This document shows, piece after piece, positions 12,685-47,896 of a stretch of 64,000 nt of DNA (the stretch's first letter is position 1; every line of letters begins with the position of its first letter). The position numbers and the translations under genes were made by a program. The notes beneath the pieces are model-generated. The model was given only the letters and a program-made list of their open reading frames with translations. It did no database searches and was not told the DNA's origin. Source of the stretch: Phycisphaeraceae bacterium (lineage in GTDB: Bacteria; Planctomycetota; Phycisphaerae; Phycisphaerales; SM1A02); contig CP054178.1 of the NCBI GenBank assembly GCA_015709595.1, positions 3,353,205 to 3,417,204 on the forward strand, in the 5' to 3' direction.

Positions 12685-12758
12685 GGCGACCGTAGCTCAG
12701 TTGGTAGAGCATCGGGTTGTGGTCCCGAGAGTCGCGGGTTCGAATCCCGTCGGTCGCC
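12685..12758 (+). tRNA. tRNA-His (anticodon GTG)
   Basis: All arms fold: acceptor GCGACCG with CGGTCGC, D stem GCTC/GAGC, anticodon stem TCGGG/CCCGA with loop TTGTGGT (anticodon GTG), and T arm GCGGG-TTCGAAT-CCCGT. An extra G at 12685 can pair with the C at 12758, the G-1:C73 pair that histidyl-tRNA synthetase requires. The 3' CCA is not encoded. Confidence 0.97.
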
Positions 12759-12802
12759 CTTTCGTGTCCTCGTCGCCGCGATACCGTTCCTAGCATGGCA
12801 CG

Positions 12803-38911: not shown

Positions 38912-40876
<1,965 letters not shown>

Positions 40877-40883
40877 GGTCGGG

Positions 40884-40889
40884 ATTGTA
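40884..40889 (-). promoter_or_regulatory. Candidate -10 element of speA
   Basis: On the minus strand TACAAT ends 7 bases before the speA ATG, so a transcript starting there would have almost no leader. No good -35 hexamer is found 15-18 bases upstream, so support is weak. Confidence 0.3.
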
Positions 40890-41035
40890 CCCGGTGTCGG
40901 CGTTCGGCACGCCCCGCGAATCCCGCGAATCATCCTCGCCGCGGCTGCCCGCCGCCCCCCTGCTCCAGTCCACAGGTTGCGGCCAGGTGAGGCCGGAGCG
41001 CATGCATTCGGAGCAAGTTCCGCCGTACATCGCCT

Positions 41036-41063
41036 TTGACTCTGCGCCAATCCATGTCATAAT
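41036..41063 (+). promoter_or_regulatory. Histidine operon promoter
   Basis: TTGACT (41036-41041) and CATAAT (41058-41063) are 16 bases apart, each 5 of 6 to consensus, and the -10 is extended by TG at 41055-41056. Transcription should start near 41070, at or just before the leader peptide ATG at 41072. Confidence 0.75.
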
Positions 41064-41071
41064 CGCTGTCG

Positions 41072-41152
41072 ATGCTCACCACGGTCCGCCATCACGCCCA
41101 CCATCATCGCGCCCACGGGCGCCGGCTGATGGTGCGCGAGCGGACTGCCTGA
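41072..41152 (+). CDS. hisL: Histidine operon leader peptide
   Basis: A 26-codon frame that encodes histidine at codons 7, 8, 10, 11, 12 and 15 (HHAHHHRAH at residues 7-15) and ends in TGA at 41150-41152. Such a concentration of regulatory codons just before a terminator and a biosynthetic operon is the hallmark of ribosome-mediated attenuation, known from the enterobacterial his operon. When charged tRNA-His is scarce the ribosome would stall here. An in-frame TAA at 41060-41062 excludes an earlier start. No ribosome-binding site is present, and the ATG lies within a few bases of the predicted transcript start. Confidence 0.85.
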   Translation: MLTTVRHHAHHHRAHGRRLMVRERTA

Positions 41153-41211
41153 CCCCACCCCCCACTGGCAGACCATCCCACCGACGCCGGCCCCGGCGTC
41201 GGCTGTTTTTT
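41109..41211 (+). promoter_or_regulatory. Histidine attenuator with terminator and antiterminator
   Basis: The terminator is CCGACGCCGG with CCGGCGTCGG (41181-41202), followed by CTG and six Ts (41206-41211), 37 bases before hisG. A competing antiterminator can form between 41117-41126 (GGGCGCCGGC) and 41186-41194 (GCCGGCCCC): nine pairs with one bulged C. A third hairpin, GCGCC-CACG-GGCGC (41109-41122), shields the first antiterminator strand and overlaps the last leader His codon. Stalling on the histidine codons would open that hairpin and allow antitermination. This gives the full 1:2, 2:3, 3:4 arrangement. Confidence 0.82.
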
Positions 41212-41248
41212 GCTTCCATCATCCCGTCTCCACGATTCAGTCCCATCC

Positions 41249-42124
41249 ATGACACCCGCCCAACAGCCCGGCATCCTTCGTTTCGCCCTGCCCAAAGGCC
41301 GCATGCAGGACAACGTTCTGCGCCTGCTTGATGACGCGGGCGTGAAGGTGCGTCTGGGCCAGCGGGAGTACCGCCCCACCATCTCGCTGCCCGGCTTCGA
41401 AACCAAGTTTCTCAAGCCGCAGAACATCGTGGAGATGCTCGACACCGGCTCGCGCGACCTGGGCTTCGCCGGAGCCGACTGGGTGGCGGAGCTCGGCGCG
41501 GGCGTGGTGGAGCTGCTCGACACCGGGTTGGATCCCGTTCACCTGGTGGCCGCGGGGCCCACGGGCCTGCTCGTCAACGGGCAACTACCAGTGCAGGAAC
41601 TGCTGGTCGCCTCGGAGTACGAATCGCTCACGCGGCAGTGGATCGCCCGGAATGGACTGAACGCCCGGTTCGTACGGTCGTTCGGCGCCACAGAGGTCTT
41701 CCCTCCCGAGGACGCCGACCTGATCGTGGACAACTCCGCCACCGGTTCGACGCTGGTCGCCAACGGGTTGACCATCGTCGATACGCTGATGACTTCCTCG
41801 ACGCGGCTCTACGCGCACCCGCGGGCGCTTGAAGATGGGGCCAAGCGCGAACGGATCGATCACCTGGTGCTGCTGCTGAAGTCCGTGCTCGAAGCCCGTC
41901 GACGCGTCATGCTGGAGGTCAACGTGACCCGCGACAACCTGGAGCAGGTTGTGGCGGTCCTGCCCTGCATGCGCGAGCCGACCATCGCCTCACTCCACGG
42001 CGACACGGGTTTCGCCGTCAAGGCCGCGGTGCCGCGGGCCGACCTGCCCACATTGATTCCCGCCATCAAGCAGGCGGGTGGGACGGACATCGTCATCTCC
42101 CAGACCACGCAGATTGTTCCATGA
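41249..42124 (+). CDS. hisG: ATP phosphoribosyltransferase, long form
   Basis: First enzyme of histidine synthesis, joining PRPP and ATP. At 291 residues it is the long form, with the two catalytic lobes (RFALPKGRMQDNV; the PRPP-binding stretch DLIVDNSATGSTLVANG) and the C-terminal ACT-like regulatory domain (about 215-291, LMLEVNVTRDNLEQVV) that binds histidine for feedback inhibition, so HisZ is not needed. The ATG at 41249 fits the family; the open frame starts earlier inside the attenuator. No clear ribosome site is seen. Confidence 0.96.
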   Translation: MTPAQQPGILRFALPKGRMQDNVLRLLDDAGVKVRLGQREYRPTISLPGFETKFLKPQNIVEMLDTGSRDLGFAGADWVAELGAGVVELLDTGLDPVHLVAAGPTGLLVNGQLPVQELLVASEYESLTRQWIARNGLNARFVRSFGATEVFPPEDADLIVDNSATGSTLVANGLTIVDTLMTSSTRLYAHPRALEDGAKRERIDHLVLLLKSVLEARRRVMLEVNVTRDNLEQVVAVLPCMREPTIASLHGDTGFAVKAAVPRADLPTLIPAIKQAGGTDIVISQTTQIVP

Positions 42125-43275
42125 CACGACGGAACACCTTTCCCGCCGATTCGCCCGCAGCCGCTTCCATCGCGGCGCTCCGGCCCGCGTTCGACGCGGG
42201 GCTGGTCAAACCGTACACGGCCCATCGGCCCCACTCGGGCGACGCGGCGCAGCGCTCCGGCGCGCGGACCGTTGACCTGTTCCTCGACGCCAACGAGGGC
42301 GCGTCTCCGCCCCGCGAGGTGATGGAGGCCCTGGCGACCGTTTCACCCGACGTGCTGCGCCGCTACCCCAGCGCCAGGCCGCTGGAGCAGCGTCTGGCCC
42401 GGCTGCTCAACCTGCCCGATGCGAATGTGCTCGTCACCGCGGGAGGCGACGACGCCCTGGATCGCTGCTGCCGGACCATGCTCGGCCCGGGACTGGAACT
42501 GCTGCTGCCCACGCCCTCGTTCGAGATGATCCCCCGCTACGCGCGGCTGCGCGGCGGCGCCGTGATCGACGTTCCGTGGGGACGCGGCCCTTTCCCCACG
42601 TCGGCGATGCTCGATCGCATCACGCCAGTCACGCGGCTGATCGCCATTGTGTCACCCAACAACCCGACCGGGTCGGTCGCCGCCGCCGATGATCTGCGCC
42701 GACTCTCGGCCGCCGCGCCGCACGCGCTGCTGCTGGTCGATCTGGCCTACACCGAGTTCGCCGATGTTGATCTCACGCCCGTTGCGCTTTCGCTGCCCAA
42801 CGCCGTCATCGTGCGTACGTTCTCCAAGGCATTCGGCCTGGCGGGCCTTCGCGTGGGATACGCCGCGTCGTCCAACGCCGACGTCATCACCTGGCTTCGA
42901 TCGGTGGGCAACCCCTATGCCGCGTCGAGCGTGTCACTGGCGGTGGCGGAGGCGTGTCTGGACCTGGGAACGGGGCGAAGGTCGCCATACTTCGATCACG
43001 TCCGCCGCGAGCGCGTGGCGCTGGCCGAGATGTTGGCTGCTCGCGGCGCCAGACCGTATCCGTCCCAGGCCAACTTTGTGCTGGCGGAAGTGAACGATCC
43101 AGCCGGGCTGCGGGCCTCGCTGGCGGCCAAGGGCATCGCCATCCGAACGTTTCCGAGTGCACCGGGACTGGAGCAGGCGGTTCGCATCACGTGCCCGGGT
43201 GATGCGGGGGCGTTTGAGCGACTGACGCGCGCGATCGCTGATTGGCGCGCCGACGTTGCATCGAATCAACTCTGA
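42121..43275 (+). CDS. hisC: Histidinol-phosphate aminotransferase
   Basis: PLP enzyme of fold type I that converts imidazole-acetol phosphate to histidinol phosphate. Of 384 residues, the Schiff-base lysine is K236 in TFSKAFGLAGLRVGY, with D207 and Y210 in LVDLAYTEF and the PNNPTG loop at 179-184. An N-terminal extension of about 45 residues precedes the family start. The ATG overlaps the hisG stop (ATGA), and the position in the operon supports HisC over other aminotransferases of the same fold. Confidence 0.93.
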   Translation: MTRRNTFPADSPAAASIAALRPAFDAGLVKPYTAHRPHSGDAAQRSGARTVDLFLDANEGASPPREVMEALATVSPDVLRRYPSARPLEQRLARLLNLPDANVLVTAGGDDALDRCCRTMLGPGLELLLPTPSFEMIPRYARLRGGAVIDVPWGRGPFPTSAMLDRITPVTRLIAIVSPNNPTGSVAAADDLRRLSAAAPHALLLVDLAYTEFADVDLTPVALSLPNAVIVRTFSKAFGLAGLRVGYAASSNADVITWLRSVGNPYAASSVSLAVAEACLDLGTGRRSPYFDHVRRERVALAEMLAARGARPYPSQANFVLAEVNDPAGLRASLAAKGIAIRTFPSAPGLEQAVRITCPGDAGAFERLTRAIADWRADVASNQL

Positions 43276-43291
43276 CGACCAAGGACTCATC

Positions 43292-43885
43292 ATGTCTCCA
43301 CCACGTACCGCAACGATCGAGCGAACCACGCGCGAGACGAGCATCCGACTTGCGTTGAACCTCGATGGCGGGGGCGATGTCACCATCTCCACCGGCCTTG
43401 GCTTCTTCGACCACATGCTCCACGCCCTGGCATATCACGCCCGGTTTGACTTGTCGTTGACCTGCCAGGGTGACCTGCGCGTGGATGACCATCACACGGT
43501 GGAGGACGTGGGACTGGTGCTGGGCGACGCCATCAATCAGTCCCTGGGTGACCGCGTTGGAATCAGGCGATTCGCCCACGCCTACGCCCCGCTTGATGAA
43601 GCCCTGGCGCGGTGCGTGATTGATCTCTCCGGCCGCCCATGTGCTGCGGTGAATCTCGACCTGCGCTGGCGCGTGGTCGGCGACACGTCCAGTGAGAATC
43701 TCACGCATTTCTTCCTGTCGTTTGCGACGACCGTGCGAGGCGCCCTGCACGTGGACGTGCTGCGCGGCGAGAATGACCACCACCGCGCCGAGGCGGCGTT
43801 CAAGGCGACTGCGCTGGCGCTGCGCGCCGCCGTGGCCCGCGATGACAGGCCCGCGGGAGTTCCCAGTACGAAGGGGACGCTGTAG
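43292..43885 (+). CDS. hisB: Imidazoleglycerol-phosphate dehydratase
   Basis: It dehydrates imidazoleglycerol phosphate to imidazole-acetol phosphate with two manganese ions. The 197 residues are a stand-alone IGPD domain with the duplicated metal motifs FFDHMLHALAYHA / DDHHTVEDVG and ENDHHRAEAAFKA. The phosphatase domain of bifunctional enterobacterial HisB is absent. The start at 43292 is chosen because the family begins at RTATIERTTRETSI; the frame opens earlier within hisC. Confidence 0.96.
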   Translation: MSPPRTATIERTTRETSIRLALNLDGGGDVTISTGLGFFDHMLHALAYHARFDLSLTCQGDLRVDDHHTVEDVGLVLGDAINQSLGDRVGIRRFAHAYAPLDEALARCVIDLSGRPCAAVNLDLRWRVVGDTSSENLTHFFLSFATTVRGALHVDVLRGENDHHRAEAAFKATALALRAAVARDDRPAGVPSTKGTL

Positions 43886-43944
43886 ACCGCCGAGGCGTTT
43901 CTCGGCTGTCGGATTCGGATTCCCATGCTCAGCGCACGCCTCCC

Positions 43945-44565
43945 ATGACCCCCATCGCACCCATCATGATCGCCCGGACGGGCGCCGCAAACGTCGCCTC
44001 GGTACGCGCCATGCTCCAGCGGCTGGACATGGAAGCGACGGTAACAAGCGACGCCGCCGCCATCGCCACGGCGCCGGCTGTGATTCTGCCCGGCGTCGGC
44101 TCGTTCGGAGCGGCGATGTCGGAGATCGAGCCAAACGGAATTGCCCGGGCGATTCGGGATCGCGTTACGTGGGATCGGCCCCTGCTCGCCATCTGCCTGG
44201 GGCTGCAACTGCTGGCGGAGTCGAGCGAGGAGTCGCCGGGAGTCAATGGGCTGGGCGTACTTCCGACGCGCGTCACGCGATTCCCCGAGCCGCTGCGGGC
44301 GCCGCATTTCGGGTGGAACATGGTCACGTCGGACGACTCCGGTGGGCTCATCGAGCCGGGATACGCCTACTTCGCCAACTCGTATCGGCTGACCAGCGCG
44401 CCGCCCGGCTGGTATTCCGCGTGGACGGACTATGGCGGACCATTCGTCGCCGCGATTGAGCGAGGCAACGTGCTGGCGTGCCAGTTTCATCCGGAACTGT
44501 CCGGCCCGTGGGGACAATCGCTGATCGAGCGATGGCTGCGTCGCGCGGGGGTGCAGACGTGTTGA
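43945..44565 (+). CDS. hisH: Imidazole glycerol phosphate synthase glutaminase subunit
   Basis: It releases ammonia from glutamine for HisF. The class I amidotransferase triad is present: C84 in LAICLGLQLL, and His and Glu in CQFHPELSG. The oxyanion strand PGVGSFGAA is normal. The N-terminal strand, usually IVDYGxGN, reads IARTGAANVASV, so the DYG part is lost. ATG 43945 is listed; the next one at 43966 aligns better with the usual start. It follows hisB after 59 bases and overlaps hisF by 7. Confidence 0.93.
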   Translation: MTPIAPIMIARTGAANVASVRAMLQRLDMEATVTSDAAAIATAPAVILPGVGSFGAAMSEIEPNGIARAIRDRVTWDRPLLAICLGLQLLAESSEESPGVNGLGVLPTRVTRFPEPLRAPHFGWNMVTSDDSGGLIEPGYAYFANSYRLTSAPPGWYSAWTDYGGPFVAAIERGNVLACQFHPELSGPWGQSLIERWLRRAGVQTC

Positions 44566-45353
44566 CCAGGCGTGTCATCCCCTGCCTCGACGTGCGCGAC
44601 GGGCGCGTGGTCAAGGGCATCCGCTTCGCCGGTCTGCGGGACGCGGGTGATCCGGCGGCCCTGGCCGCCTGCTACGAGCGGCAGGGCGCGGATGAACTGG
44701 TGATGCTCGACGTCAGCGCCACCACCGAGGGGCGCGCCGCCGCCATTCAGACGGTGCGGGCGATTCGATCCGTCATCTCCATTCCCCTCACCGTCGGTGG
44801 CGGCGTGCGCTCGGTGTCGCACGCGCGGGATCTGCTCGAAGCCGGCGCGGACAAGGTGGCCGTCAACACCGCCGCCACCGATCGACCGGAGATTCTCCGA
44901 GAACTGGCCCGGCAATTCGGCACGCAGTGTACGGTGATCGCCATCGACGCGGCGCGGCGTGCAGAAGAAACCAGCGGAACGTCGTCACCCTGGCAGGTCA
45001 TGATCCGCTCCGGCACGGTCCGCCTCGATCTGGACGCTTTGGAATGGGCTCGCACCGCCGCATCGCTCGGCGCGGGTGAGATACTGCTCACCAGCTGGGA
45101 CCGTGACGGTACGCGATCCGGCTACGATCTGGACCTGATCACCGCCGTCAGCCGGGCAGTTCGCATACCCGTCATCGCCTCCGGCGGAGCGGCGATGCCG
45201 CTGCATCTGGTGGAAGCCCTCGACGCGGGCGCGGAAGCGGTTCTGGCCGCGTCGATCTTTCACGACGGCCAGCACACCGTGGCCGACGTCAAGCAGGCGC
45301 TCGCCCGTGCCGGTGTGCCGGTGCGTCTGGAGCACTGGGGAGCCGGCACATGA
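44559..45353 (+). CDS. hisF: Imidazole glycerol phosphate synthase cyclase subunit
   Basis: A TIM-barrel enzyme that forms imidazoleglycerol phosphate and AICAR with HisH. Catalytic aspartates are in IPCLDVRDGRVVKG and VIAIDAARR; the phosphate-binding loops are LTVGGGVRS and VIASGGAAM. The GTG at 44559 gives the family-standard N-terminus (xLTRRVIPCLDV) and overlaps the hisH stop; the open frame extends upstream but there it is hisH in another frame. 264 residues, the expected size. The stop overlaps the next gene (ATGA). Confidence 0.95.
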   Translation: MLTRRVIPCLDVRDGRVVKGIRFAGLRDAGDPAALAACYERQGADELVMLDVSATTEGRAAAIQTVRAIRSVISIPLTVGGGVRSVSHARDLLEAGADKVAVNTAATDRPEILRELARQFGTQCTVIAIDAARRAEETSGTSSPWQVMIRSGTVRLDLDALEWARTAASLGAGEILLTSWDRDGTRSGYDLDLITAVSRAVRIPVIASGGAAMPLHLVEALDAGAEAVLAASIFHDGQHTVADVKQALARAGVPVRLEHWGAGT

Positions 45354-46597
45354 TCGTTCCCTCGATTGACCTGATGGACGGGCAGGCCGTGCAACTCGTG
45401 GGCGGGCGTGAAAAGGCGCTCGACGCCGGTGATCCGCGTCCCATTGCGAGGCGCTTCGGGCTGGCGGGCGAGGTGGCGGTGATCGATCTGGACGCCGCCC
45501 TTGGACAGGGCTCCAACGCAACGCTCGTCACCGAGATCCTCGACCTGGCCCGCTGCCGCGTGGGCGGTGGCATCCGCGATGTTGACACGGCCATCCGCTG
45601 GCTCGATGCCGGCGCGGCCAGGGTGATCCTGGGTACCGCGGCGACCCCGGACGTGCTCTCGAAGCTCCCCCGCGATCGGGTGATCGCCGCGCTCGACGCC
45701 GTGCATGGCGAGGTGGTCGTGCATGGCTGGCGCACCAGGACGGGCCGGAGCGTGACCGAGCGCCTGAGTGAACTGAGTCCATATGTGGGTGGCTTCCTGG
45801 TCACGTTCGTCGAACGCGAAGGGCGATTGCAGGGCATCGACCTCGACGCCGCCGCCCGACTTCGCGAGGCGTGCGGCGACGGGTGCTCTCTCACCGTGGC
45901 CGGCGGGGTCACGACGATCCAGGAGATCGCCGCACTGGATGCGCTGGGCATCGACGCCCAGGTGGGCATGGCGCTGTACACCGACCGAATGCATCTGGCG
46001 GACGCCATCGCGGCGCGCCTGATCACCAGGGCTGATGAGACGCTCTGGCCCACCGTGATCGTGGATGAGCTGGGCGTTGCGCTGGGTCTGGCGTGGTCGA
46101 ACGTCGAGTCCCTCCGCCGCGCCGTCGAAACGCGGCGCGGCGTCTACTGGTCGCGCTCACGGGGGGCGTTGTGGGAGAAGGGCACGACCTCCGGCGACAC
46201 GCAGGAACTGCTGGCGATCGACCTGGACTGCGACCGCGACTGCCTGCGCTTCACGGTACGTCAGCATGGCAGGGGGTTCTGTCACACCGGCGCACGGACC
46301 TGCTGGGGCGAGGACGCGGGGTTGCCCCGACTGGTCCGGCGCCTTCGTGACCGGCTGGAGCACGCTCCGCCCGGCTCGTACACGCGCCGCCTGTTCGATG
46401 CCCCTGATCTGCTGCGGAAGAAACTGCTTGAGGAGGCGGAGGAACTGGCCGAGGCGCCGGACCGTGACAACGCCGCGTGGGAGACCGCCGACTTGCTCTA
46501 TTTCGCGCTGGCCGCCATGATCCGTCGCGGCGCCGCGCTCGAGGACGTGATGCGCCACCTCGACCGACGGGCGCTCAAGGTGACGCGCCGCGATTGA
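45350..46597 (+). CDS. hisAIE: Fused HisA-HisI-HisE: isomerase, cyclohydrolase and pyrophosphohydrolase
   Basis: One 415-residue frame carries three enzymes. Residues 1-230 are a HisA TIM barrel (catalytic D7 in PSIDLMDG, second acid D116, phosphate loops CRVGGGIRD and TVAGGVTT). Residues 231-325 are the HisI cyclohydrolase: WSRSRGALWEKGTTSGDTQ, DLDCDRDC and GFCHTGARTC, with zinc cysteines C294, C311 and C318. Residues 326-415 are the HisE pyrophosphohydrolase (KLLEEAEELAEA; ETADLLYFALAAM). Together they perform the second, third and fourth steps after HisG. HisI-HisE fusions are common; addition of HisA at the front is not a usual arrangement. No frameshift or stop separates the parts. Confidence 0.93.
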   Translation: MIVPSIDLMDGQAVQLVGGREKALDAGDPRPIARRFGLAGEVAVIDLDAALGQGSNATLVTEILDLARCRVGGGIRDVDTAIRWLDAGAARVILGTAATPDVLSKLPRDRVIAALDAVHGEVVVHGWRTRTGRSVTERLSELSPYVGGFLVTFVEREGRLQGIDLDAAARLREACGDGCSLTVAGGVTTIQEIAALDALGIDAQVGMALYTDRMHLADAIAARLITRADETLWPTVIVDELGVALGLAWSNVESLRRAVETRRGVYWSRSRGALWEKGTTSGDTQELLAIDLDCDRDCLRFTVRQHGRGFCHTGARTCWGEDAGLPRLVRRLRDRLEHAPPGSYTRRLFDAPDLLRKKLLEEAEELAEAPDRDNAAWETADLLYFALAAMIRRGAALEDVMRHLDRRALKVTRRD

Positions 46598-46618
46598 CGA
46601 TGCCCAAGCGAGCCAGCC

Positions 46619-47896
46619 ATGTTCCGACGAGTCGCACTGGATGACCTGCTTCGACGCCGTGCCGCAACGCTTGATGACGAGACGTTCCGCGTCGCCGGCG
46701 CCATCGTGGATGACGTGCGCGAGCGCGGCGAGACGGCCCTGCGAGAGCACGCTTTCCGCTTCGGCGACCTGAGCGCGGCGGACGAACCCCTGACCCTCGA
46801 ACGCGGGCAACTGGAGCGATCGCTGTCCTCGCTCGACGCCGAGTCACGCGGCGTGCTGGAGCGCGCGGCGGAGCGCATCCGCCGCTTCGCGCAACATCAA
46901 CGCGCATCGCTGCAGGATCTCACCGTCTGCGTACCCGGCGGCCAGGCGGGGCATCGTTTCGTACCCGTCGAGGTTGCGGGCTGCTATGCGCCGGGGGGGC
47001 GATACCCGCTTCCGTCCTCCCTGCTGATGACGGTCATTCCCGCCCGCGTGGCGGGCGTGGAGCAGGTGATCGCCGCTTCGCCCCGTCCTTCATCCATCAC
47101 GCAGGCGGCGGCGGCCATCGCCGGGGCGGATCACCTCCTCATCATCGGCGGGGCGCAGGCCATTGCCGCGCTCTCCTGCGGCTGCGCGGGGTTGCCCCCC
47201 TGCGATGTCATCGTCGGTCCCGGCAATCGGTGGGTCACCGCCGCCAAGCATGTTGCGTCGCGCTTCGCACGCATCGACATGCTCGCGGGACCGTCGGAAC
47301 TGCTGGTCATCGCCGATGACTCCGCAGACCCGTCGCTCGTGGCGGCGGACCTGCTGGCCCAGGCGGAGCATGACGAGGACGCCCTGCCGATCCTCGTCGC
47401 CCTGGGACGTGGAACGGCGGAGCGCATCGTCGAGCAGGTGCGCCGGCGATTGATCAAACTTCCCTTCCCCGCGACGGCCCGCATCGCGCTCTCCAACGGG
47501 GGCTGGATCAGTGCGGAGAATGAGGAGGAGGCCGTTTCCATCAGTGACGCGATTGCGCCCGAACACCTGCAGGTCTGCACGCGCCATTCCGAGGAGTTGG
47601 CCGCGCGCCTGCGGCACTATGGCGCCATCTTCATCGGCGAGCGCGCCGCGGAAGTGTTCGGCGACTACGGCATCGGACCGAATCACACCCTGCCCACCGG
47701 CGGGGTGGCGCGTCACAGCGCGGGGCTGTCCGTACTGCACTTCCTGCGCCCGCTGACGTTCCTGCGCTTCGATGACTCGCCCCAATCCATCGCGGACGCC
47801 GAAGCCATCGCCCGCGATGCCGCCGCGATGGCCCGAATGGAGGGGCTGGAGGCCCACGCCCGCGCGGCGGAAGCGCGAATCACGGCCCGATCGTGA
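46619..47896 (+). CDS. hisD: Histidinol dehydrogenase
   Basis: It oxidises histidinol to histidine in two NAD-dependent steps. The 425 residues are of normal length, with VAGCYAPGGRYPLPSSLLM, DVIVGPGNRWVTAAK, DMLAGPSELLVIAD, the zinc ligands in QAEHDEDA and the catalytic Glu-His pair in DAIAPEHLQV, and GPNHTLPTGG. It is the last gene of the his operon, 21 bases after hisAIE. Its 3' end overlaps the convergent gene by 17 bases. The operon contains no histidinol-phosphate phosphatase. Confidence 0.96.
   Translation: MFRRVALDDLLRRRAATLDDETFRVAGAIVDDVRERGETALREHAFRFGDLSAADEPLTLERGQLERSLSSLDAESRGVLERAAERIRRFAQHQRASLQDLTVCVPGGQAGHRFVPVEVAGCYAPGGRYPLPSSLLMTVIPARVAGVEQVIAASPRPSSITQAAAAIAGADHLLIIGGAQAIAALSCGCAGLPPCDVIVGPGNRWVTAAKHVASRFARIDMLAGPSELLVIADDSADPSLVAADLLAQAEHDEDALPILVALGRGTAERIVEQVRRRLIKLPFPATARIALSNGGWISAENEEEAVSISDAIAPEHLQVCTRHSEELAARLRHYGAIFIGERAAEVFGDYGIGPNHTLPTGGVARHSAGLSVLHFLRPLTFLRFDDSPQSIADAEAIARDAAAMARMEGLEAHARAAEARITARS

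What the first reader, a model, noticed from the sequence alone, without database searches (positions are those of the whole stretch)
41036..41249. Complete His-codon attenuator in front of a planctomycete-like his operon
A sigma-70-type promoter, a 26-codon leader with six His codons within nine positions, a shielding hairpin, a nine-pair antiterminator (41117-41126 with 41186-41194) and a ten-pair terminator with six Ts all occur in order, 37 bases before hisG. Leader-peptide attenuation of his operons is described mainly in Proteobacteria; I am not aware of one described in this phylum. All elements are read from the sequence; their function is inferred.
Basis: partly seen in the sequence, partly recalled or inferred. 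Interest (0 to 1): 0.85.

Follow-up and report, generated by a model that had tools for sequence, protein, structure and literature searches.

The report
Leaderless histidine attenuator in Planctomycetota
In front of the histidine-making genes of a planctomycete lies a built-in switch, a tiny histidine-rich reading frame plus a transcription stop signal, which probably turns the genes on when histidine runs short; similar switches turn up in related genomes and in some genomes labelled as other phyla, and the tiny reading frame seems to begin at the very start of the RNA.

Summary
Promoter, 26-codon leader (six His in nine codons), shielding hairpin, antiterminator and terminator lie at the stated coordinates; no other short ORF in the window has five or more His in nine codons. 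In the window's order (class Phycisphaerae, Planctomycetota), 85 of 88 untruncated hisG upstream regions examined in two families hold a His-rich short ORF, against 0 of 34 examined in two other families with another HisG subfamily. The same HisG subfamily carries it in records labelled as eight phyla, mostly metagenome bins. The terminator covaries strongly; the antiterminator is conserved, but its covariation on a plain alignment is not significant. Simulated stalling on His codons favours the antiterminator, as in E. coli hisL. RF00514 His_leader does not match. The leader start codon lies 5-10 nt after the -10 box in 100 of 109 scored promoters and 0 of 118 have an SD-like motif, so the leader is probably translated from the RNA 5' end. 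Verdict: ribosome-mediated transcription attenuation, a new variant of a known kind; function is inferred. My paper searches found no his attenuator described in this phylum.

The parts
41036..41063 (+). sigma-70-type promoter: -35 TTGACT 41036-41041, -10 CATAAT 41058-41063, spacer 16
   Evidence: TTGAC within 44 nt upstream of the leader start in 93 of 118 leaders, about 2% expected from background
41072..41152 (+). leader peptide ORF, 26 codons, ATG to TGA; start codon 8 nt after the -10 box, so the transcript probably begins at or next to the ATG
41090..41116 (+). His codons 7, 8, 10, 11, 12 and 15 of the leader (sensor)
   Evidence: only run of this density in the window
41095..41138 (+). 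1:2 shielding hairpin: 41095-41106 (within the His codons) with 41127-41138
   Evidence: over 118 leaders own 1:2 pairing beats 2000 of 2000 swaps
41118..41133 (+). segment 2 (GCCGGC TGATGGT), antiterminator 5' side
41172..41194 (+). segment 3: ACCATC 41172-41177 (same sequence as in the His run) and GCCGGCCCC 41186-41194, antiterminator 3' side; the second part overlaps the terminator
41181..41211 (+). intrinsic terminator 41181-41202 followed by T6 41206-41211
   Evidence: stem conserved with two-sided changes in relatives
41249..42124 (+). hisG, first structural gene of the operon
42121..47896 (+). rest of the operon: hisC, hisB, hisH, hisF, hisA-hisI-hisE fusion, hisD (hisH, hisC and hisF named from Pfam domain plus order)

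Best explanation
A ribosome-mediated transcription attenuator of the his operon. RNA polymerase starts at or within a nucleotide or so of the leader ATG, and a ribosome loads on the 5' end of the nascent RNA without a Shine-Dalgarno sequence. With charged tRNA-His plentiful the ribosome crosses the His codons; segment 2 (GCCGGCTGATGGT) is then masked by the ribosome or pairs back with the vacated His codons (1:2), segment 3 is free, the GACGCCGG terminator forms and transcription stops before hisG. When tRNA-His is uncharged the ribosome stalls on the His run and holds segment 1, segment 2 pairs with ACCATC plus GCCGGC ahead of it (2:3), the terminator arm is taken and polymerase reads into hisG-C-B-H-F-A/I/E-D. 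Shown: anatomy, conservation, pairing potential. Inferred: transcription start, translation, stalling, termination and response to histidine.
For: All parts in order. f1/f2 upstream regions: 82 of 90 with 4 or more His in 9 codons, 85 of 90 with 3 or more (2 of the 90 cut by contig ends); f5/f6: 0 of 34 at either cut. In the His windows 687 of 713 in-frame CAN codons are CAT or CAC (the leaders were chosen for His, so partly built in). Own 2:3 duplex -23.7 kcal/mol against -17.6 with shuffled segment 2 (z below -1 in 94 of 118); own partners beat 2000 of 2000 swaps, likewise for 1:2. Triple changes U-A-U over segments 2-3-4 at one position in L049, L069, L071, L089, L184 and at another in L063. 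Terminator 99.2% paired, 24 two-sided cells, reached by 0 of 500 shuffles. Constrained folding, n = 118: terminator 5' arm already taken .79 when stalled on His (mean over His codons).47 with ribosome at stop.58 with none; stalled above stop in 106, above free in 93; window .77-.79 at the first five His codons.01 at the sixth.23 at stop.41 free. E. coli hisL, same method.68-.78.007.001. Promoter spacing and 0 of 118 SD-like motifs.
Against: No transcript or reporter data. On the MAFFT alignment of 40 leaders, chosen by me for typical geometry, the antiterminator is paired in 92.5% (helix 1) and 63.3% (helix 2) of cells but does not covary beyond shuffles (score reached by 46 of 500, both-sided pairs by 169 of 500). 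At equilibrium the window's terminator stays above .92 even when stalled, so the switch must be kinetic (E. coli hisL .999). Over 118, the equilibrium terminator falls only from .96 (stop) to .79 (stall mean). The window's leader runs 11 codons past the last His, against a median of 6, and its shielding at the stop codon is weaker than E. coli's. Swaps and shuffles do not control for relatedness. 13 of 118 have only 2-3 T in the 10 nt after the stem. Three f2 regions have largely lost the His run.
Confidence: 0.92

Rival explanations
1. Leader-peptide control acting through translation or through Rho: the stalled ribosome opens the hisG start or blocks Rho, and the hairpin with T-run is incidental.
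For: 13 of 118 leaders have weak T runs; mycobacterial Cys leaders have no obvious terminators (PMC1262725, passages).
Against: The terminator stem is the best conserved and best covarying part, the window has T6, and 46 nt separate the stem from the hisG start.
Confidence: 0.05
2. A small functional peptide or RNA in trans: the His-rich peptide binds a metal, or the terminated leader RNA or its peptide acts elsewhere, as described for rhizobial peTrpL and rnTrpL (PMC7298713, passages).
For: The peptide is strongly His-rich; a short, terminated, leaderless mRNA would be made, as with rnTrpL.
Against: Outside the His run the listed peptides differ widely in sequence and in length, 12-51 codons. 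All were found by searching upstream of hisG, so independence from hisG was not tested. It could be an added role rather than a replacement.
Confidence: 0.03
3. Chance: an ordinary terminator and a fortuitous His-rich ORF.
For: High-GC sequence yields hairpins easily; the fold z-score is a moderate -4.1.
Against: Recurs in 85 of 88 untruncated f1/f2 regions and in other families and phyla, not in 34 f5/f6 regions; the gene upstream, speA, is on the other strand.
Confidence: 0.01

Closest known systems
E. coli/Salmonella his operon attenuator (hisL; Rfam RF00514 His_leader)
   Same: His-codon leader peptide, alternative structures, intrinsic terminator before hisG; the same pattern in constrained folding
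   Different: RF00514 finds E. coli hisL (131.6 bits) but not the window or 15 relatives; start codon at the 5' end here, whereas E. coli hisL has a 5' UTR (recalled); other stems, with a GCCGGC core and ACCATC before the terminator
Rhizobial trpL attenuator (Sinorhizobium meliloti)
   Same: The RNA 5' end starts with the ATG of the leader ORF; transcription attenuation (PMC7298713, passages)
   Different: Trp, not His; Alphaproteobacteria; unrelated operon
Mycobacterial polycysteine leaderless short ORFs
   Same: Leaderless ORF with contiguous regulatory codons (PMC9031893, a passage citing Canestrari 2020, which I did not read)
   Different: Cys; described as regulating translation of downstream genes; no obvious terminators (PMC1262725, passages)
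Firmicutes His leader peptides (hisS/hisZ in bacilli; his genes in three lineages)
   Same: His-run leader peptide with terminator and antiterminator proposed (PMC2965389 and PMC9413887, passages)
   Different: Other phylum; no sequence comparison was made here

Membership tests
Ribosome-mediated (leader-peptide) transcription attenuator | short ORF rich in codons of the operon's amino acid upstream of the biosynthetic operon | tested here: met
Ribosome-mediated (leader-peptide) transcription attenuator | intrinsic terminator between leader ORF and first gene | tested here: met
Ribosome-mediated (leader-peptide) transcription attenuator | mutually exclusive antiterminator overlapping the terminator arm | tested here: met
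   pairing potential, swap test and triples; covariation on the plain alignment not significant
Ribosome-mediated (leader-peptide) transcription attenuator | ribosome position decides which structure forms | tested here: inconclusive
   constrained folding agrees with the E. coli control, but it is a model and equilibrium values do not switch in the window
Ribosome-mediated (leader-peptide) transcription attenuator | readthrough responds to charged tRNA-His | not testable with these tools
   needs transcript or reporter data
Rfam RF00514 His_leader | match to the covariance model | tested here: not met
   window 40900-41400 scanned to E = 10 and 15 relatives at gathering: no match; E. coli control matches
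T-box riboswitch | match to the Rfam T-box model | tested here: not met
   not among the matches
Leaderless leader-peptide attenuator | transcription start at the leader start codon, no SD | tested here: inconclusive
   -10 to start codon 5-10 nt in 100 of 109 scored promoters (118 looked at), 0 of 118 SD-like; no 5'-end data

The most novel reading that the evidence does not exclude
The window holds one member of an undescribed RNA class: a leaderless His attenuator with a shared GCCGGC/TGATGGTG core that goes with one HisG subfamily across eight or so phyla, by inheritance or transfer, and in which a copy of the His-codon sequence (ACCATC) placed before the terminator competes with the real His codons for segment 2. 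It would imply that polymerase and the first ribosome run coupled in Planctomycetota and in these other phyla.
Probability: 0.55. Interest if true: 0.72.

Novelty: new variant of a known kind. Interest (0 to 1): 0.62.

Why it matters
A 2010 survey stated that, to its authors' knowledge, leader-peptide systems were shown only in Proteobacteria and Actinobacteria (setting aside ermC) before it added His leaders in bacilli (PMC2965389, passages). A conserved His attenuator in Phycisphaerae, and probably elsewhere, widens that range. It offers a natural test of transcription-translation coupling in Planctomycetota, whose cell compartments have made coupling a question (recalled). A leaderless start would put the very first ribosome directly behind polymerase, a simple answer to the timing problem of attenuation. 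It also gives an annotation rule: His-rich ORFs of about 20 codons before this HisG subfamily.

Tried and rejected
Rfam to E = 10 on the window: seven hits, none of a fitting family or near its gathering score. Trp leader before the trpE-like genes and Leu leader before the one HMGL-like gene of the same genome: no convincing leader ORF in the loci read; no ilvB match to test. Genome-wide count of the terminator sequence as a control: the pattern was too strict and missed the known site itself, so says nothing. Genome-wide H-H-x-H-H-H codon patterns: 14 hits with this one; the others were not followed. HisG tree of 89 rows (quick method, 41 of 86 inner branches open): leader and no-leader rows are clustered and phyla are mixed; it cannot tell gain, loss or transfer.

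Rows dropped: 11 named loci taken as duplicates of fetched stretches (judged by equal contig length and peptide) and 9 doubtful rows (L131, L138, L167, L198, L208, L215, L223, L229, L244) before the 118; one search left out one long row (117) and two without the core (116). For one search, 10 odd rows were left out of 118 and I chose 40 of the other 108 for typical geometry, which favours good alignment. L095, L096 and L122 (2-3 His) were not counted as having a leader. Eight of the 98 f1/f2 hisG genes were not examined.

Considered and rejected: that every HisG gene of the order carries it (0 of 34 examined in f5/f6).

Full report
WHAT IS THERE. The sequence and the pattern scan give TTGACT-N16-CATAAT at 41036-41063, a 26-codon ORF at 41072-41152 with six His codons between 41090 and 41116, and a GC-rich hairpin 41181-41202 followed by six T at 41206-41211, 37 bases before the hisG ATG at 41249. 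An inverted-repeat search of 40850-41300 lists the competing pairings among its ten: 41095-41106 with 41127-41138 (shield), 41118-41126 with 41186-41194 and 41128-41143 with 41162-41177 (antiterminator), 41181-41190 with 41193-41202 (terminator). The RNA folds better than 200 of 200 shuffles. Of ORFs of 8-60 codons in the 64 kb, both strands, this is the only one with five or more His in nine codons; shuffled windows average 0.05. The operon behind it is hisG, hisC, hisB, hisH, hisF, a fused hisA-hisI-hisE and hisD; speA lies upstream on the other strand.

IN RELATIVES. hisG occurs in 152 of 400 genomes of the order: by my count 98 in families f1 and f2 and 54 in f5 and f6. I examined 90 of the 98 and 34 of the 54 (loci). 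A short ORF with at least four His in nine codons lies within 800 nt upstream of the HisG match in 82 of 90 f1/f2 and 0 of 34 f5/f6; with at least three His, 85 of 90 and 0 of 34. Two of the five misses are cut by contig ends; L095, L096 and L122 keep a similar ORF with 2-3 His. HisG of f5/f6 scores about 138-160 bits to Pfam HisG, that of f1/f2 about 98-130, two f2 matches lower: two subfamilies. In 40 regions from other orders of the class, seven have HisG under 120 bits and all seven have a four-His ORF by the cut; one (L131) I judged doubtful, being long and without a good terminator. Of the 33 above 120 bits, none reaches four His and one (L138) reaches three. In the phylum sample, 5 of 10 regions before HisG close to the A1 profile (320 bits or more) have it at four His, one has three, one is cut by a contig end, three have none or no convincing one; of 10 regions before other HisG, one has it (L260). 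By peptide, three of those five repeat loci of the next scan. A named-genome scan with A1 kept the best 80 of 366 loci; 40 of 80 have a four-His ORF, two of them doubtful. After duplicates and doubtful rows, 27 named leaders are labelled Planctomycetota 9, Myxococcota 5, Gemmatimonadota 3, Spirochaetota 3, Acidobacteriota 2, Pseudomonadota 2, Sumerlaeota 1, Armatimonadota 1, unassigned 1. The rows titled Geminicoccaceae have none. Nearly all carriers are metagenome bins, so single labels can be wrong. Order members share contig lengths with records titled Phycisphaerales, Phycisphaerae or Planctomycetota; since one record titled Phycisphaerales matches a genome of another order (L238 and L127), I place the window in class Phycisphaerae and leave the order unnamed.

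PROMOTER AND START. In 118 leaders (85 f1/f2, 6 class, 27 named), TTGAC lies within 44 nt upstream of the start codon in 93, with 89 occurrences at -33 to -40; the background rate predicts about 2% of sequences. In the 109 with a promoter score of 8 or more, the -10 box ends 5-10 nt before the start codon in 100. An SD-like motif at -18 to -3 occurs in 0 of 118; whether SD motifs are usual in these genomes was not tested. Since transcription usually starts about 7 nt after the -10 box (recalled), the leader RNA should begin at or within a few bases of the start codon. In the window the gap is 8 nt. Leaderless leader ORFs are known for rhizobial trpL (PMC7298713, passages) and mycobacterial Cys ORFs (PMC9031893, passage).

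ALTERNATIVE PAIRINGS. The consensus of 40 is His run - CGTGGCCGGGTGATGGTGT - CCAnCGACGCCGGCC - loop - GCCGGCGTT; several have ACCATCGACGCCGGC in full. TGATGGTG is complementary to His codons CACCATCA, and ACCATC before the terminator repeats that sequence, so segment 2 can pair back or ahead. Duplex energies: 2:3 own -23.7 against -17.6 for shuffled segment 2; 1:2 own -19.6 against -13.4; own partners beat 2000 of 2000 swaps in both cases. Triples of segments 2-3-4 read U-A-U at one position in L049, L069, L071, L089 and L184 and at another in L063 (pairing there was chosen by energy and leans towards complementarity). On the plain alignment the terminator is 99.2% paired with two-sided changes at three pairs (24 cells and the covariation score, 0 of 500 shuffles; number of such pairs, 17 of 500). 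The antiterminator's helices are 92.5% and 63.3% paired, and its covariation is not beyond the shuffles (46 of 500; cells paired 7 of 500). So conservation, not covariation, carries most of the antiterminator evidence.

RIBOSOME MODEL. With the ribosome footprint masked, the chance that the terminator's 5' arm is already taken before the 3' arm is made averages .79 for stalls on His codons.47 with the ribosome at the stop codon and .58 with no ribosome; stalled exceeds stop in 106 of 118 and free in 93 of 118. In the window it is .77-.79 on the first five His codons.01 on the sixth (the ribosome covers segment 2).23 at stop and .41 free. E. coli hisL gives .68-.78.007 and .001, so the method recognises a known attenuator and the window behaves alike with looser shielding. 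At equilibrium neither switches: terminator above .92 in the window and .999 in hisL in every state. A likely reason for the looser shielding is that the window's leader runs 11 codons past the last His against a median of 6; a TGA where most relatives end their leader, inside segment 2, stands out of frame at 41127-41129.

AGAINST KNOWN FAMILIES. RF00514 His_leader detects E. coli (131.6 bits) but nothing in the window or 15 relatives; no T-box match either. It works like the classical his attenuator but is not shown to belong to RF00514.

LITERATURE. Searches of the open PMC library returned, in listings, no description of a his attenuator in this phylum; on his operon leaders, leaderless leaders and Gemmatimonadetes showed none in their listings either (one search listed 15 of 47, 10 of 58). 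PMC4833913 (passages) concerns leader-gene spacing, Planctomycetes included, not his. PMC2965389 (passages) names Proteobacteria and Actinobacteria as the only earlier groups and adds bacilli; PMC9413887 (passages) adds three Firmicutes lineages. Vitreschak 2004 and Lopatovskaya 2010 were seen only as references and could hold earlier mentions.

VERDICT. The finding is real and the interpretation right; it is one case of a recurring element. I rate function as an attenuator at 0.92, the leaderless start at about 0.85, and novelty as a new variant of a known kind.

Noticed in passing
window 45350-46597: One ORF carries HisA (His_biosynth), HisI (PRA-CH) and HisE (PRA-PH) domains: a trifunctional HisA-HisI-HisE fusion.
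   Followed up: partly
family f1 of the window's genome: Only 5 of 37 genomes of the family have a hisG match (several genomes are incomplete), so histidine auxotrophy may be common there.
   Followed up: no
own genome G000: No TPP_enzyme_N (IlvB-type) match in a one-contig, 99% complete genome, while 14 of 14 control genomes have one: possibly a branched-chain amino acid auxotroph.
   Followed up: no
L260 (G674): A His-rich leader-like ORF (MTTILHVFHHCIHHHLRHSPERGSQVC) precedes a hisG of the other subfamily; possibly an independent leader.
   Followed up: no
L207, L218, L232: Three spirochaete-labelled leaders share a conserved tail (VAMIVIP or VTMIVIP) and nearly the same terminator, a tight local version of the element.
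   Followed up: partly
window 41127-41129: A TGA where many relatives end their leader, inside segment 2, is present but out of frame, so this leader runs on for 8 more codons; shielding at the stop is then weaker.
   Followed up: partly
window 12686-12759: A tRNA-His (GTG anticodon) gene lies in the same window.
   Followed up: no
L095, L096, L122 (f2): Leader-like ORFs with only 2-3 His beside a promoter-like sequence and a terminator-like hairpin: possible decay of the sensor.
   Followed up: no
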